Below, one piece after another: positions 40,704-47,401 of a stretch of DNA of 64,000 nt. Origin of the DNA: Candidatus Iainarchaeum sp. (GTDB taxonomy: Archaea > Iainarchaeota > Iainarchaeia > Iainarchaeales > UBA10191); contig JAUSFL010000008.1 of assembly GCA_030649735.1 (NCBI GenBank), positions 85,141-149,140 of the forward strand, written 5' to 3'. Each line of letters begins with the position of its first letter. Within the stretch, counting starts at the first letter, position 1. The notes beneath the pieces are model-generated. The model made no database searches and was not told the origin of the DNA. It saw only the letters and a program-made list of their open reading frames with translations. Both the position numbers and the translations under genes were made by a program.

Positions 40704-41717
40704 TTAATTTGGGAAGAATTCTCCGGGCATAACTATTCCTTTAGCTACTTGGATTTCATCAACTGCTCCATTAATTGATGGTACTACGTCGCATCCATAA
40801 CCGCTTGCTAAAAACTTCATTGAATTGTTTCCGCTAGTTCCGCCCAAGGGAGCGACAATACTTTCTTGGCTTACTCCATTTTGAAAGATTTCCCAAGTAT
40901 TTGAAGACTTAGTGAATTGAATTGTTAATTGAGTCCAAACATCTAAATCTGGTCTATTCCAAGTAATTGATGTAGAATCATTATCATTAACATAAAATTT
41001 CAGTTTGGCTGTATCGGCTGGTATTTTAATGTAAGCTCCATAATAGCCTGCGCCGCATTTAAAATCTCCAAATAAGTAAGTTTCTGACGTTGCATTGTGA
41101 AGTTTAAACCAGAAATTAATTGTAAAATCATCTGATTTTAAAGTGTCAAATCCTACTGGCGCACTAACGTAATAGCCAGAGCCTGCATTGTCATAACTTC
41201 CGTTGTATATTCCATTAGGATTCCATCCAGCTGAAGTAGTAACAAGCCCGTCATAAATTGAGGTTCCTTCTTGATTATCTGCAGTAGTTCCTTCTGTTTC
41301 ATTAAGCCCATACCAGTAAATGTAATTTATATTCGCGTCGATATTGGTACTGCAATCCCCGCCTTTCAACTTCAAAGCGCCATTAGCCACTGTAATGCAA
41401 TATGGTTGTCCAGTGACTTTATCAGCAATTGTTAAACCGTTTGCGATTGTAGCATAGCCGCTAACATTCAGGTTACTGATGCTTGCGTTGCCGCTAACGC
41501 TTGAATCTCCACTAACAGTAATCTGGTTTGTTGAAACAGTATTTGGGCTAATGTCTTTGCCGTCTACATTGTAGTCTTGAACGGGTAAGTTTGTTAAGCC
41601 AGAACCGTCACCATAGAATTTATTTGCAAAAACATTTCCGAAAACAGTAATATTGTCAGCAATCAAGTTTTTGAAAAAGTTGAATCCACTCCAGTTTAAA
41701 TCTCTTGTCAAAAAGTG
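40704..41717 (-). pseudogene. 3' fragment of a secreted LamG/ConA-like protein gene interrupted by a transposon
   Basis: LamG-like FTINFWFKLHNATSETYLFG...WTQLTIQFTKSSNTWEIFQNG; no signal peptide; in-frame N-terminus is at 47128-47281. Confidence 0.8.
41708..41717. repeat. target-site duplication, left copy
   Basis: tcaaaaagtg, identical to 47128-47137. Confidence 0.8.
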
Positions 41718-41781
41718 GGCTTTGCCCAACAAGTCTGCCCATAAACCGACTTAATGGGCAGAATGAGGACTTTATGTGCAG

Positions 41782-42351
41782 TTAATCATCTACTACTTTT
41801 TTTACTTCTGAATTTATTTTGCTTTTTGTTGATTCTCTGAATTTATCTATCTCAGATTCCCAACTCTTCCAGAAACGCTCATAATCGTCTAATGACTTAT
41901 ATTCTTGCTCTTCAAACTCTGCTTGTTGTTTAGCAAGCTCTTCCCAGTAATCATCAGAATAATGTGGTTCACTTGGGTCTTGGTCTTCTAATTTATGTAA
42001 TTCAATAATTTGATTTTTCAGGTGTTCTTTAATGATTTGAGGAATATATTGCCCATTAACTGAATTAAGAAAACTATTTAATTCAGTCTCAAAACGCCGT
42101 AATCCATCATTATTTAATGTGGCAAAAATATTTTCTAATTCTTGCAGTGCTTGTTTTCTATCCGCATAAGTTATTTGAAGCCTAACATTCCTTTCAGATT
42201 GGTTTAATGCCTTTTTATTTAAATAATAAGAGAATAGTAAAGATAACAAGGCGATGAAAAGACCAGAAATTATGCTAAATATGCTTATCCAATTTTCAGG
42301 TGTGAACTCTACCATACTTACTTTTTGTGTGGTATTATTTAAAAGCCTCAA
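41782..42351 (-). CDS. hypothetical single-TM coiled-coil protein
   Basis: ISIFSIISGLFIALLSLLFSYYL TM, then an acidic helical region; overlaps the transposase start side. Confidence 0.55.
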   Translation of the reverse strand: MRLLNNTTQKVSMVEFTPENWISIFSIISGLFIALLSLLFSYYLNKKALNQSERNVRLQITYADRKQALQELENIFATLNNDGLRRFETELNSFLNSVNGQYIPQIIKEHLKNQIIELHKLEDQDPSEPHYSDDYWEELAKQQAEFEEQEYKSLDDYERFWKSWESEIDKFRESTKSKINSEVKKVVDD

Positions 42352-43529
42352 CTTCTGAAATCCAAGCTAATGCCTAATTCATTAACTTCGTGAATCAGGC
42401 AGACTATGTTGTAGCATAGGACTTTGAGTAATAGCTCGTTTTTCTGGGCTATTGGCTTTCTGCTTTTCAGGCAATCATTGAACTTTGCTTTTAGTGAGTA
42501 AAAGCTTGTTTCAATGTTTGACCTTTTGTGATAGAATTGTCCAAATTCTTCCTTGTTGAATTGGAAGTAGTGGAACATTTTTTTCCAAGTTTGGCTTCCT
42601 TTAGAGTTTCCGCTTGCGTTGCTTCTGAATGGAATGTATGCTTTACCGCCTAATTCTTTGACAGTATCATAATTTGCTCTTGAACTGTAAGCTTTGTCTG
42701 CGCTTACTTCTTGCAGGCTAAATCCGTTGTCTGCGGTTTGTTGGATTAACGGAGCAAAATAAAGACTGTCGCCAGAGTTGTTTTCTGAAACTTGACAGGA
42801 TGTTATAGTGTTGGTTTTTGTTCCACAGACTGCATGAAGCTTAACCCATTGATGCGCTTTTTTAGTGTCATGCTTTTCTTTGCAGTAGTCGTTGAATTTT
42901 GTAGTGCGAAAGCCAGTGCTATCTACTGCAAAACTGGTTTCAACGCTTTTTAATGGAGCAGAACTTTCTGCAATCAAGCTTTCAAGCAAGGGCGTGAGTT
43001 CTGGCTCGTTAAAGTATTTGATTATAGTATTGTAGTGGTGGGTTTTGCTGATTAAGCCTTTTTCAAAAGCTTCCTTAATGTCAGTGTTAGCTCTCCGTGT
43101 GGAAAATTGAGTATAAACCTTCAAAGCGCAGCAGAAAGCCATTTCTCCAATGTTGGCTTTAGGTCTGCCAAAATTCGCTTCTTGCTCCGTATTTGTTAAG
43201 TCTTTCAAGAGCTTCAAAAATTGTTCTTTCTCTGAAGTTTGGCTTTTGTTGTAGGCAGACCATGCTTGAGGGTATGTCAATCGCTTGTTTTCCACTTTAA
43301 CCGAACCGTCCCTTTGTGTCGTAATCTTTTGCAGATAGTATTGGACTGCGAAAGCGTGCTTGCACTTATCAGTTGAACCTTTCTGGCAATCTGGACAAGT
43401 GCAAACGCCTTGCTTGTCCACAAAGTAAAATCTCTCGCTGTTTTGGGATTGAACCGCATAACCATCATCCATTTTCTTTATTGTTCTCGTTTGAGCAATT
43501 ACTCGCCCTTTCTGTTCTCGCAAATCCAT
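42348..43529 (-). CDS. SWIM zinc-finger DDE transposase (IS4/IS5-like)
   Basis: CTCPDCQKGSTDKCKHAFAV SWIM; FAVDSTGF / VSADKAYSS / RSNIETSFYSLK DDE residues; start set at MDLREQ. Confidence 0.85.
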   Translation of the reverse strand: MDLREQKGRVIAQTRTIKKMDDGYAVQSQNSERFYFVDKQGVCTCPDCQKGSTDKCKHAFAVQYYLQKITTQRDGSVKVENKRLTYPQAWSAYNKSQTSEKEQFLKLLKDLTNTEQEANFGRPKANIGEMAFCCALKVYTQFSTRRANTDIKEAFEKGLISKTHHYNTIIKYFNEPELTPLLESLIAESSAPLKSVETSFAVDSTGFRTTKFNDYCKEKHDTKKAHQWVKLHAVCGTKTNTITSCQVSENNSGDSLYFAPLIQQTADNGFSLQEVSADKAYSSRANYDTVKELGGKAYIPFRSNASGNSKGSQTWKKMFHYFQFNKEEFGQFYHKRSNIETSFYSLKAKFNDCLKSRKPIAQKNELLLKVLCYNIVCLIHEVNELGISLDFRS

Positions 43530-43559
43530 ACAACCACCCACCAAACCATTCAAAGTATT

Positions 43560-43579
43560 ATAGTATTACATAATACTAT
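43560..43579. promoter_or_regulatory. palindromic operator-like site between divergent transposase and RHH genes
   Basis: ATAGTATTA-ca-TAATACTAT perfect 9-bp inverted repeat. Confidence 0.6.
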
Positions 43580-43597
43580 AAAGCAATAGTCTTTTAA

Positions 43598-43626
43598 ATA
43601 CTACTGTAATTCTATACTACTGTAAT
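43598..43626. repeat. tandem direct repeats ATACTACTGTAAT x2, 16-bp spacing
   Basis: 43598-43610 and 43614-43626 identical. Confidence 0.7.
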
Positions 43627-43629
43627 ACT

Positions 43630-43776
43630 ATGAAGCGTAAAACAACCAGTATTAAAGTAGACCCAGAATTCTGGAAACAAGTCAAGTCATATACTGCACT
43701 TAAAGGAATTGACATAAGCGACCTGCTTGAAGACTTGTTGAAAAAAGAGTTAGAAAAGGAGAAAAAAAAGCAATAA
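43630..43776 (+). CDS. 48-aa ribbon-helix-helix (CopG-like) DNA-binding protein, absent from the supplied ORF track
   Basis: MKRKTTSIKVDPEFWKQVKSYTALKGIDISDLLEDLLKKELEKEKKKQ; TTTAAATA box upstream. Confidence 0.75.
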   Translation: MKRKTTSIKVDPEFWKQVKSYTALKGIDISDLLEDLLKKELEKEKKKQ

Positions 43777-43819
43777 CGAGCGGAAATGTCGCATAACACA
43801 TGTTTTAAAACCCAAAAAA

Positions 43820-45730
43820 TTGATTTTGAGTGAAAAAATGCCCAGAGCAAGAAATTCAGAAGTTGATGCTTATGCCTTCATAAAAGAACACTTGGCAATA
43901 CATGGGTGGGTTGTAAAGAATCCAAATAGAACAATGAATGGGCAAGTTTATACTCAAAACGAGTGTTTGGATAATCCCGAGATTGCTCGCTGCTTAGTGC
44001 GAGATAGACCAGAAAATATAGTCAAATTATCTGAAACTGAATATTATGTCATTGAGGCAAAAAGAAACAAAGAACAAATAACTCAAGCATTAACTGAAGC
44101 TGAAGATTACGCAAAAGCAGTAAATACAAGTAGGGCAATAAAAGCAAAAGTTATTTCTGGCGTAGCTGGTAATTCAACAGATGGTTTCTTAGTAAAAAGC
44201 AAATATTTTAAGAACGGCAGATTTAATCCAATTAAAATTAATGGTAAAGAAATTACAAGTTTTGTTTCTCCAGCAATAGCTAAATTACTATTAGAAAATG
44301 ATTCTAGTGAAATAGCCGACTTGCCAGTTGATGAGGTAGTATTTCTAAAGTCTGCTGAAGACATAAACAAAATATTGCATTTGGGGGCAATTAATAAAAA
44401 TTATCGTGCAAGAGTTATGGCTGCATTACTCTTAGCATTAATTGATGACACCCGTCCAAATGTAGATGCTTCCCCGAGAGTTTTAATAAATGAAATAAAT
44501 TCACGAGCCGAAAACATACTAATTAGGAATGGAAAGCCAGAATTTTTTGATTGCATAAAAATAGCACTTCCACCAAGCCAAGACAACCACATAAAATTCA
44601 AAAACTCACTAGTCCAAACAATTCAAGAGTTAGAAAATTTAAACATTCGCTCCGCAATGAATTCTGGAACAGATGTTCTTGGAAAGTTCTATGAAGTATT
44701 TCTAAAATACGGAAACGGAGCAAAAGAAATAGGAATAGTCCTCACACCAAGACATATCACTAGGTTCGCAGCAGACATATTTAACATAAAAAGTAGCGAC
44801 ATAGTTTTAGACCCTGCTTGTGGAACTGGCGGATTTTTGGTCGCTGCTTTTGACCAAGCTAAAAAAACAGCAACTCAATCAGAATTAGATTGGTTCAAAA
44901 ATAATGGATTATATGGGGTTGAACAAGAGCCTGAAGTTGCAGCATTGGCAATAGTAAACATGATTTTTAGAGGGGATGGAAAAAATAACATTATTGAAGG
45001 AAACTGTTTCCAAAAAACTTTGATAGCAAGAAATTTAAGTGGTAGATTAAGTGCAAAGTTTTACAATAATCCCGAACTTCCAGAAGTAAGAACTTCTGCT
45101 GCAACCAAAATTTTAATGAATCCACCATTTGCTCTTAAAAAAAGCGATGAAAAAGAGTACAAGTTTGTTCAACATGCATTAGACCAAATGCAAAATAATG
45201 GCTTACTTTTTTGTATTCTTCCCATTTCCACAATGGTAATTAGTGGGGAAGAAAAAAATTGGCGTTTGAATAAACTTCTACAAGAAAATACAATAATTTC
45301 AGTAATTTCTTTCCCACCAGAATTATTTTATCCGATAGGAGTTTATACATTAGGAATAATAATAAAAAAGGGGAATCCACACCCACCGAGCCAAAATGTT
45401 CTGTGGTTAAGAATAATGAAAGATGGATTTGTAAAGAAAAAAGGCAAAAGAGTTTTATCTGATTCAGAATCAAATGATTTTGTTAAATATAATAAGTTAA
45501 TTAAAGAATTTATTGCAAACCAAAATATAGAAGTAAAAACAATTCCAAGAGAATGTAAGGCAACACCAATAAATTTTGAAAGTGAAACTTTTGAGTTAGT
45601 TCCTGAAGTCTATATTGATGATGAAAAATTATCTTGCAGAAAGTTTGAGAAAGAATTAGAAGTGCGTTTAAGAGATTACCTCGCATATTTAATGAGAATT
45701 GATGCTGGTGAATTGAATGAAAATAATTGA
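43820..45730 (+). CDS. fused PD-(D/E)XK-like nuclease / N6-adenine DNA methylase
   Basis: N-terminal PENIVKLSETEYYVIEAKRNKEQ; MTase motifs DPACGTGGFLVAAF and ILMNPPFAL. Confidence 0.8.
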   Translation: MILSEKMPRARNSEVDAYAFIKEHLAIHGWVVKNPNRTMNGQVYTQNECLDNPEIARCLVRDRPENIVKLSETEYYVIEAKRNKEQITQALTEAEDYAKAVNTSRAIKAKVISGVAGNSTDGFLVKSKYFKNGRFNPIKINGKEITSFVSPAIAKLLLENDSSEIADLPVDEVVFLKSAEDINKILHLGAINKNYRARVMAALLLALIDDTRPNVDASPRVLINEINSRAENILIRNGKPEFFDCIKIALPPSQDNHIKFKNSLVQTIQELENLNIRSAMNSGTDVLGKFYEVFLKYGNGAKEIGIVLTPRHITRFAADIFNIKSSDIVLDPACGTGGFLVAAFDQAKKTATQSELDWFKNNGLYGVEQEPEVAALAIVNMIFRGDGKNNIIEGNCFQKTLIARNLSGRLSAKFYNNPELPEVRTSAATKILMNPPFALKKSDEKEYKFVQHALDQMQNNGLLFCILPISTMVISGEEKNWRLNKLLQENTIISVISFPPELFYPIGVYTLGIIIKKGNPHPPSQNVLWLRIMKDGFVKKKGKRVLSDSESNDFVKYNKLIKEFIANQNIEVKTIPRECKATPINFESETFELVPEVYIDDEKLSCRKFEKELEVRLRDYLAYLMRIDAGELNENN

Positions 45731-46181
45731 CAAATTTAATATAGAGAAGGCAAAATCAAAGGCATTTGGAAATCACAAAATAGGAAACATTCCTTTTATT
45801 TCAAATGGTTTTGACAATAATGGTTTTGTAGGCTTTGTTAAACCACTCCAAAGTGAAAGAATATTTAATCAAGATGGAATTTGCATATCTGCTTTTTGCG
45901 AGGCAACAGTACAAAAAGCCCCATTTTTACCAAGAGGAAACGGTGGCAGTGGATTAACTGTATTAATTCCAAAAGAGAAAATGAATCAAGAGCAATTACA
46001 CGTTTATGCGGGTTTAATAAATACTCAAAGATGGAGATTTTCCTTTGGAAGAATGGTAATATCAGATAGATTATCTGAATTAGACCTTCCAAATATACCG
46101 AGAGAATTTGAGAATAATACTGTAAAGAAAATAGTAAATAAAATACTAAATTCCGCAATGAAACAAATAACTAAAATATAA
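45717..46181 (+). CDS. short restriction-modification specificity-like protein
   Basis: IPFISNGFDNNGFVGFVKPL...LPRGNGGSGLTVLIPK...RMVISDRLSELDLPNIP; overlaps the methylase gene. Confidence 0.55.
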   Translation: MKIIDKFNIEKAKSKAFGNHKIGNIPFISNGFDNNGFVGFVKPLQSERIFNQDGICISAFCEATVQKAPFLPRGNGGSGLTVLIPKEKMNQEQLHVYAGLINTQRWRFSFGRMVISDRLSELDLPNIPREFENNTVKKIVNKILNSAMKQITKI

Positions 46182-46187
46182 CTAATT

Positions 46188-46583
46188 TTGAGAGAAATTA
46201 TGTTTTGGCTTGTTAATCATTCTTGGGAGTCTTTTAAGAGAACTCAAGAATATTGCGGTTTTATTTCTGAAAATGAGCGAAACAAAATAGCAATCGGCGA
46301 TAGCGTTGTTTATTTTGGTCAGGGCTTGGTTTTTGGATTGTTTGAAGCTATAAGCTTGCCAGAGAATGAGTTTAAAGGCTGGCAGAAACAGTATCCTTTT
46401 CAAGTCAAGCTAAAACCAATTTTACTGGCTAAAGGCGGTTTGAAAGCCAAAGTTTTAGAAAGTAAGATTTTATTGCAAAAAAGCGCAGGCAGTTCAGGAA
46501 ACCTTATTGAACTCTCCGAAAGCGAGTTCAACCAAATAACGCAAGCAATAGAAACAGGACGAAAAGAGCTGGTGTTTGAATGA
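46188..46583 (+). CDS. EVE/PUA-like domain protein
   Basis: MFWLVNHSWESFKRTQEYCGF...IAIGDSVVYFGQGLVFGLFEAISL...WQKQYPFQVKL. Confidence 0.55.
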   Translation: MREIMFWLVNHSWESFKRTQEYCGFISENERNKIAIGDSVVYFGQGLVFGLFEAISLPENEFKGWQKQYPFQVKLKPILLAKGGLKAKVLESKILLQKSAGSSGNLIELSESEFNQITQAIETGRKELVFE

Positions 46584-47074
46584 ATGATTTTATGCGGCAC
46601 AAATCTATTTATGAAAAAAAAGTTAGATTTATTGATGATTTTGTAGATAAATATATTAGAATCAGGCATAGCAAAAATTTTCCACATACAGCAATAGGTA
46701 TTGTAATAAAATTGCTTTTTCCAAAGTCATACAAAATTAACAAAGGGTGGTATAAAACTGCTTTTTATATCTCATCAAGAAAAAAAGATTTAGTGATAAA
46801 AATAGGCAGAACAAAAAACTTGAAACAAGATTGGAAAGCTTACCAAAAATTCCCTAAAGGAATTAGAAATAAATATTTCGCCAAAATTTATTGGCACTCT
46901 AAATATTGCTTACTTCAAAAATGGGGTAAAGCCGCAAAAATTAGCAATAAAGACCCCCGAATAATTAAATTAAAGGAAAAAGCGAGCTATTATGGCTTAA
47001 ATGATATAAAACCCGCAAATACGGCTTTCTTTGATGGAAAATTAAAAATTATAGACGCAAGCATAAAAAAATGA
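46580..47074 (+). CDS. minimal protein kinase-like protein
   Basis: DLVIKIGRTKN (beta3-Lys-like); GLNDIKPANTAFFDGKLKIIDAS resembling HxDxKPxN...KIxDFG. Confidence 0.5.
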   Translation: MNDFMRHKSIYEKKVRFIDDFVDKYIRIRHSKNFPHTAIGIVIKLLFPKSYKINKGWYKTAFYISSRKKDLVIKIGRTKNLKQDWKAYQKFPKGIRNKYFAKIYWHSKYCLLQKWGKAAKISNKDPRIIKLKEKASYYGLNDIKPANTAFFDGKLKIIDASIKK

Positions 47075-47113
47075 CTTTATGGGCAGACTTCTGACTTTGT
47101 GGGCAAAAACGAC

Positions 47114-47281
47114 TTAATAGGCAAAGCTCAAAAAGTGTTCTCTTGCTTCTTGATTTGTATCGAGTGTTTCATCTATTACAACCGGCTTTTCTGGCTTGCC
47201 ACCTGCAGCAGCAATGACTGAAACAGACAAAACGAAAAGACTAAAGATTATTGCTAATATAACTAAAATTCTCCCATTCAA
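47114..47281 (-). pseudogene. 5' fragment of the disrupted LamG gene, encoding its signal peptide
   Basis: TTG start after gagggg: (M)NGRILVILAIIFSLFVLSVSVIAAAGGKPEKPVVIDETLDTNQEAREHFL, then runs into the TIR and stops. Confidence 0.75.
47128..47137. repeat. target-site duplication, right copy
   Basis: tcaaaaagtg identical to 41708-41717. Confidence 0.8.
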
Positions 47282-47401
47282 AAAACATCCCCTCGCAAAT
47301 TAGTTGATAACTTCAAAGGGAGAGAAAACTCATTTAAACTCGAAACTGAGCTTTAAAAGCAAGTTCACTAAAAGTGGGGCACAGTACTAAAAGTGTGAAG
47401 T

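What the first reader, a model, noticed from the sequence alone, without database searches (positions are those of the whole stretch)
41718..47127. Cargo transposon carrying a nuclease-methylase / specificity / EVE / kinase-like operon
The ends read as imperfect inverted repeats (GGCTTTGCCCAACAAGTC vs AGCTTTGCCTATTAAGTC) flanked by a perfect tcaaaaagtg duplication (9 or 10 bp, depending on where the TIR starts). Inside are a SWIM/DDE transposase, an RHH protein and a four-gene operon resembling a compact restriction or defence module. A defence island mobilised by a single DDE transposase in an archaeon would be unusual. Boundaries and TSD are seen directly; the defence function is inference.
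Basis: partly seen in the sequence, partly recalled or inferred. Interest (0 to 1): 0.85.

Follow-up and report, generated by a model that had tools for sequence, protein, structure and literature searches.

The report
Archaeal transposon family carrying restriction-modification systems
A 5.4-kb jumping element in a tiny archaeon carries a DNA-cutting immune module between its ends, and it belongs to a widespread, apparently undescribed family of one-transposase elements, about half of which carry such modules, so it is a likely vehicle by which these archaea exchange immunity genes.

Summary
The element spans 41718-47128 (5411 bp) with TIRs GGCTTTGCC/AGCTTTGCC and a 9-bp TSD, CAAAAAGTG. Joining the flanks restores one open frame of a secreted Laminin_G protein, so this is an insertion. 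The core is a SWIM+DDE transposase (IS5 superfamily, IS903-like ends and TSD) with a divergent RHH gene that looks like a regulator, not cargo. The cargo is a BcgI-like nuclease-N6-methylase, a single-TRD specificity subunit, an RM-associated EVE-like protein and a mini-kinase-like protein.

It is not a one-off. A genome scan by transposase gave 80 loci; 43 have both ends with an exact 9-bp TSD (0 of 1578 decoys), 2.3-9.3 kb long, none a bare transposase. 21 of 44 elements carry a DNA methyltransferase (type I-like, IIG, IIB-like, C5+Vsr, EcoRI-type+GmrSD); a scan of 134 flanking genes listed none. Cargo is shuffled relative to the transposase tree, and each element has its own terminal iterons. 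Hosts are mostly DPANN and methanogenic archaea.

Transposition and restriction are inferred, not shown. No description was found in the open library. Verdict: new variant of a known kind (defence-cargo transposon).

The parts
41709..41717 (.). left target-site duplication CAAAAAGTG
   Evidence: 9-bp length fixed by 43 relatives
41718..41780 (.). left end: TIR GGCTTTGCCCAACAAGTC plus two further subterminal iterons (GACTTAATGGGCA, GACTTTATGTGCA)
   Evidence: own-element iteron enrichment
41782..42351 (-). 189-aa ORF, predicted N-terminal membrane helix plus coiled coil (by eye); function unknown
   Evidence: no family above cut-off; no relative among fetched loci
42348..43529 (-). transposase: N-terminal CxC...CxH (SWIM-like) motif plus DDE domain; D200/D275/E337 of the alignment conserved; ATG start at 43529 (open frame runs to TTG 43553)
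   Evidence: PF01609 4.4e-29; NF033579 IS5 139.1 bits vs cut-off 140; alignment A1; hhalign to IS903 96%
43530..43629 (.). divergent promoter region with palindrome AGTATTACATAATACT, probable RHH operator
   Evidence: 4 other RHH-bearing elements have it within 2 mismatches, 0 of 71 loci without RHH
43630..43776 (+). 48-aa ribbon-helix-helix protein, probable regulator of the transposase
   Evidence: RHH_4 4.3e-4; found divergent to the transposase in 10 of 81 loci, always on the opposite strand
43838..45730 (+). 630-aa fused nuclease-N6-adenine methyltransferase (RM subunit, BcgI-like)
   Evidence: N6_Mtase 5.6e-34; PADLOC REase_MTase_IIG PDLC03602 5.1e-46; N-terminal HsdR-like weak hit NF008521 0.0028; IEAK and NPPF motifs
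45717..46181 (+). 154-aa specificity subunit with a single TRD; start overlaps the RM gene by 14 bp
   Evidence: Methylase_S 0.005, PADLOC Specificity_II 5.8e-4
46203..46583 (+). 126-aa EVE-like RM accessory protein
   Evidence: 6 intact homologues (44-74% identical) next to HsdM or HsdR of type I RM systems; weak profile match to EVE structures 1wmm 0.028 and 2p5d 0.095
46580..47074 (+). 164-aa mini-kinase-like protein (K74, D142, N147, D159 kept), ATGA overlap with previous gene
   Evidence: only clear homologue found lies at the right end of element L110 next to an N6 RM gene, E 2e-8; TCAD9 0.0018
47072..47128 (.). right end: iterons GACTTTATGGGCA, GACTTTGTGGGCA, GACTTAATAGGCA and TIR AGCTTTGCCTATTAAGTC (on - strand)
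47129..47137 (.). right target-site duplication CAAAAAGTG
40704..47290 (-). interrupted host gene (secreted Laminin_G_3-domain surface protein), split by the element; start codon near 47277-47290
   Evidence: restored frame; Laminin_G_3 2e-12

Best explanation
This is an autonomous unit transposon, probably cut-and-paste. Its one DDE transposase (IS5 superfamily, IS903-like) binds element-specific iterons at both ends and inserts with a 9-bp TSD. A divergently transcribed RHH protein probably represses the transposase at a palindromic operator. The rest is an exchangeable cargo slot holding a BcgI-like restriction-modification operon: fused nuclease-methylase, one-TRD specificity subunit, EVE-like accessory and mini-kinase. 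The module probably methylates a host site and cuts unmodified incoming DNA, and may make loss of the element costly (addiction). Shown here: insertion, boundaries, intact genes, family, cargo exchange. Inferred: transposition today, the repressor role, restriction activity, addiction.
For: Restored host ORF and 9-bp TSD. 43 relatives with the same end structure, 0 of 1578 decoys. Joined flanks also restore open frames in L080 (220 aa, junction at aa 88), L121, L111 and L073. Own-iteron enrichment, 3.34 copies per element versus 0.92 in other elements' ends. 21 of 44 elements carry a DNA MTase; PADLOC on 126 cargo proteins gives 374 families dominated by MTase_I/II/IIG, while 134 flanking proteins give none of these among the listed families. 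BcgI-like RM is in the window, in L084 (51% over 634 aa) and in G032 (70%); window and L084 transposases lie in different halves of the tree. EcoRI-type MTase + GmrSD/HNH sits on two distant transposases, L055 and L118. RHH plus operator. Low GC of the element.
Against: No empty site was found in a relative: the only same-genus genome lacks the host gene, and a Methanothrix test was negative. The specificity subunit and EVE-like protein match their families only weakly. The data are draft MAGs. No experiment was run.
Confidence: 0.82

Rival explanations
1. The element is an ordinary IS, and the restriction genes were captured once by chance between its ends or beside it (accidental passenger).
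For: Cargo differs between relatives, and some elements carry no recognisable defence gene.
Against: No transposase-only copy among 43 complete elements; MTases in 21 of 44 elements of independent types; at least 13 changes of RM state on the transposase tree; PADLOC MTase families absent from the listed families of flanking genes.
Confidence: 0.08
2. The cargo operon mainly works as an addiction (toxin-antitoxin-like) module that keeps the transposon, with phage defence secondary.
For: RM systems behave as toxin-antitoxin pairs, and EVE is proposed to act alongside them in archaea (PMC7641849, read); other elements carry SocA/Panacea antitoxin domains.
Against: Many cargoes look like plain defence systems (GmrSD/HNH, Vsr, MamI) and others have no MTase; the two roles are not exclusive.
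Confidence: 0.3
3. The element is a decayed or non-autonomous remnant, or its boundaries are an assembly artefact.
For: MAG assembly; no second copy of this element in the genome.
Against: All ORFs intact, catalytic residues kept, located inside a 149-kb contig, same architecture in dozens of independent assemblies.
Confidence: 0.04

Closest known systems
IS903 group of the IS5 family
   Same: GGCTTTG termini and 9-bp TSD (IS903-like IS of pSC101: GGCTTTGTTGAATA, 1057 bp; 9-bp DR for IS5/IS903 elements in PMC3281130); homologous DDE domain.
   Different: Multi-gene cargo instead of a ~1.05-kb single gene; extra N-terminal SWIM-like motif; several iterons per end; optional RHH regulator; mostly archaeal; transposase only 23-26% identical to IS903-type transposases on plasmids.
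Tn7-like transposons with defence cargo (PMC8649781)
   Same: Cargo rich in RM genes; arrays of transposase-site-like repeats at both ends.
   Different: One transposase instead of the TnsABC machinery. That survey found no Tn7-like transposase in archaea.
BcgI/BsaXI Type IIB restriction enzymes
   Same: Fused nuclease-methylase plus separate specificity gene (papers listed).
   Different: Specificity protein has about half the length of the matched 341-aa Specificity_II model (one TRD); two extra genes, EVE-like and mini-kinase.
Stand-alone EVE proteins beside archaeal type I RM systems (PMC7641849)
   Same: Homologues of the window protein lie beside HsdM/HsdR in six genomes.
   Different: Here with a Type IIB-like system inside a transposon; sequence too divergent for Pfam EVE.

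Membership tests
IS5 family, IS903 group | DDE_Tnp_1 transposase related to IS903 | tested here: met
   PF01609 4.4e-29; hhalign A1 vs IS903 96%, E 2.5e-9
IS5 family, IS903 group | curated IS5 model cut-off (NF033579, 140 bits) | tested here: inconclusive
   139.1 bits
IS5 family, IS903 group | GGCTTTG-type termini and 9-bp TSD | tested here: met
IS5 family, IS903 group | about 1.05 kb, transposase gene only | tested here: not met
   5411 bp; relatives 2261-9284 bp
Tn7-like transposon | TnsA/TnsB/TnsC/target-selector genes | tested here: not met
   no such gene in the element
BcgI-like Type IIB RM | fused nuclease-N6 methylase subunit | tested here: met
   PDLC03602 5.1e-46, N6_Mtase 5.6e-34; the nuclease part rests on weak HsdR-like hits and an IEAK motif
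BcgI-like Type IIB RM | separate specificity subunit with two TRDs | tested here: inconclusive
   154 aa, one TRD, Methylase_S 0.005 below cut-off
BcgI-like Type IIB RM | cuts both sides of a bipartite methylated site | not testable with these tools
   needs enzymology or methylome
EVE domain proteins | Pfam EVE match or PUA-like fold | tested here: inconclusive
   no Pfam match; profile hits to two EVE structures at 0.028 and 0.095 among chance hits of similar score; single-sequence model unusable, pLDDT 37.5
protein-kinase-like fold | VxK lysine, catalytic D..N and metal-binding D | tested here: inconclusive
   K74, D142, N147, D159 identical in the two homologues; TCAD9 0.0018; model pLDDT 48

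The most novel reading that the evidence does not exclude
A previously undescribed, mainly archaeal family of single-transposase unit transposons with a dedicated, exchangeable cargo slot for restriction-modification and other conflict systems is a major vehicle of defence genes in DPANN and methanogenic archaea, an archaeal functional counterpart of Tn7-like defence cargo carriers.
Probability: 0.6. Interest if true: 0.85.

Novelty: new variant of a known kind. Interest (0 to 1): 0.76.

Why it matters
How genome-reduced DPANN archaea acquire defence genes is poorly known. A 2026 census reports RM as under-represented there, and the word transposon appears in it only in a reference title (PMC12988326); the Tn7-like defence carriers known from bacteria were not found in archaea (PMC8649781). 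A compact element with a single transposase, defined ends and swappable RM cargo gives a concrete mechanism, a way to find new defence genes (read what lies between [GA]GCTTTG ends with 9-bp TSDs), and a possible simple tool for gene delivery.

Tried and rejected
(1) 10-bp TSD reading: rejected, relatives show 9 bp. (2) RHH as antitoxin or cargo (weak CcdA/RelB hits): rejected in favour of a transposase regulator, because it is always divergent to the transposase and several carriers share an operator-like palindrome. (3) Direct empty site: G001 lacks the gene; in the genus of L075 (Methanothrix, 26 genomes) no genome had the two flanks adjoining. (4) AlphaFold models of the EVE-like and kinase-like proteins had pLDDT 37.5 and 48, so no fold search was made. 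(5) Solved-structure search for the kinase-like and S proteins gave chance hits only. (6) viral-contig scan with the transposase failed twice on the server, so carriage by viruses is untested.

Full report
OBSERVATION. The region 41718-47128 is bounded by GGCTTTGCCCAACAAGTC and the complement of AGCTTTGCCTATTAAGTC and by the 9-bp repeat CAAAAAGTG. Removing the element and one repeat copy gives a single open frame running from a signal-peptide-like start, MNGRILVILAIIFSLFVLSVSVIAAAGG (start codon as M), through the junction into a Laminin_G_3 surface protein. This is the most direct evidence of insertion. The element has 34% GC, the rest of the window 42%.

CORE. The transposase (42348-43529, minus) has an N-terminal CxC...CxH motif of SWIM type and a DDE_Tnp_1 domain (4.4e-29). 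NCBIfam's IS5 model scores 139.1 against a cut-off of 140. D, D and E of the catalytic triad are invariant among six homologues. Its DDE domain aligns with the IS903-type transposase of pSC101 (96%, E 2.5e-9), whose ends GGCTTTGTTGAATA match; 9-bp duplications are tabulated for the IS903 group in PMC3281130. It is therefore a distant, cargo-bearing branch near the IS903 group. It is not a plain IS903-type IS, because size and gene content differ.

RELATIVES. In 96 genomes related to the host, full-length SWIM-type copies occur in several families of the same order. A GTDB scan with the transposase alignment gave 111 relatives; the best 80 were fetched, 62 of them archaeal. These were chosen by transposase, not by cargo. 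With a generic end finder (9-bp exact repeat plus inverted ends starting [GA]GC.TTG), 43 of 80 loci gave both ends; 1578 decoys gave none. Many of the remaining loci are on short contigs. Sizes are 2261-9284 bp, so no element is a bare transposase, although a few small ones (for example L100) have no recognisable cargo ORF. Joined flanks also restore open frames in L080, L121, L111 and L073.

ENDS. Each end carries the TIR plus, as a rule, one to three further copies of a 13-bp box that differs between elements. The box of an element's own TIR occurs on average 3.34 times in its subterminal 2 x 92 bp, against 0.92 times in other elements' ends. I read these as transposase binding sites that coevolve with the transposase, comparable to the TnsB-site arrays of Tn7-like elements (PMC8649781). 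This reading is inference.

REGULATOR. The 48-aa RHH gene recurs upstream of and divergent from the transposase in 10 of 81 loci, always in that orientation. The palindrome AGTATTACATAATACT in the shared promoter is present within 2 mismatches in 5 of these 10 (counting the window, from which it was taken) and in 0 of 71 loci without RHH. The RHH protein is best seen as a modular repressor of transposition.

CARGO OF THE WINDOW ELEMENT. The 630-aa protein is a fused nuclease-N6 methylase (N6_Mtase 5.6e-34; PADLOC type IIG model of 637 aa, 5.1e-46) with an IEAK motif in an HsdR-like N-terminus (weak). It is followed by a 154-aa single-TRD specificity protein. The 14-bp and 4-bp gene overlaps indicate an operon. 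The third protein has homologues in nine of 97 genomes. In all six intact cases kept for the alignment it lies beside HsdM or HsdR of a type I RM system (Pfam). This fits the reported association of stand-alone EVE proteins with type I RM in archaea (PMC7641849), but the fold assignment is weak. The fourth is a minimal kinase-like protein with lysine and D..N..D residues kept. Its only clear homologue is at the equivalent place in element L110, again beside an N6 RM gene. The nuclease-methylase itself is found in only one other of 97 relatives, next to the same kind of transposase.

CARGO OF THE FAMILY. Of 126 cargo proteins of at least 120 aa, Pfam finds N6_Mtase in 14, Eco57I in 12, C5 methylase in 3, N6_N4_Mtase in 3, EcoRI methylase in 2, HSDR_N_2 in 7, HSDR_N in 2, Methylase_S in 4, and Vsr, GmrSD_N, NYN and SocA/Panacea in 2 each (some proteins match several models). 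By element, 21 of 44 carry a DNA MTase (Pfam, catalytic motifs and reading of the sequences). PADLOC at 1e-5 lists MTase_I/II/IIG families in up to 14 members (and mad2, a methylase, in 15) for cargo; the 134 flanking proteins give no such family among those listed (only the top 25 families are printed). Other cargo includes a MamI-type REase (5.8e-36), AEP-TOTE primase with a HerA-like ATPase, and an EVE and an ASCH protein. ORFs were called by a simple longest-ORF rule, so small genes may be missed.

EXCHANGE. On the transposase tree, RM presence needs at least 13 changes over 44 tips. Close transposases carry different cargo (L092/L096, L093/L130, L099/L118), and distant ones carry the same type: BcgI-like in window and L084; EcoRI methylase plus GmrSD/HNH in L055 and L118. 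The cargo slot is therefore exchanged often.

MECHANISM AND CONFIDENCE. Shown: insertion, ends, intact genes, family, enrichment, exchange. Inferred: DDE transposition activity now, RHH repression, methylation and restriction, an addiction effect. The EVE-like protein may sense modified bases and the mini-kinase may regulate the enzyme; these two roles are guesses.

NOVELTY. Ten full-text searches in the open library found Tn7-like defence cargo in bacteria, IS-linked movement of an RM system in E. coli (PMC3031569) and thaumarchaeal IS-like transposons described as one or two genes (PMC6563490), but no description of this family. Subscription papers and ISfinder were not searchable, so an existing description cannot be excluded.

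Noticed in passing
L183, L184, L185, L186, L188, L189 (EVE-like gene beside HsdM/HsdR): The EVE-like protein of the window element is an accessory of type I RM systems in six other archaeal genomes of the same order; in some a small zinc-ribbon-like protein follows it (L184, L185, L189).
   Followed up: partly
L102:11258-15915: A transposon of the family in a Parvarchaeum MAG carries a HerA-like ATPase and a TOTE-type primase-polymerase instead of RM genes.
   Followed up: partly
L087:8695-9522, L099:4203-5519, L108:4930-5676: Three elements carry a protein that by eye resembles proteasome-like Ntn hydrolases; Pfam did not confirm it for L099.
   Followed up: no
L066:1791-2879, L071:8003-9148, L080:7987-9141: Similar-looking ~360-384-aa proteins of unknown function, each near a small HTH-like protein, recur as cargo; possible undescribed conflict system.
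   Followed up: no
L081:110-5042: Two tandem copies of one element (Methanothrix) sharing a middle end, giving a composite-like structure with one TSD.
   Followed up: no
L002 (G000:C42:58-984): The host genome holds a second relative of the transposase without the SWIM part matched (43% identity) on a 1.1-kb contig; similar transposases in L039, L043 and L046 also have 9-bp TSDs and 3.0-4.7-kb elements, so the cargo habit may be wider than the SWIM clade.
   Followed up: partly
window 40704-47290: The insertion inactivates a secreted Laminin_G-domain surface protein that has no match in the only same-genus genome held.
   Followed up: partly
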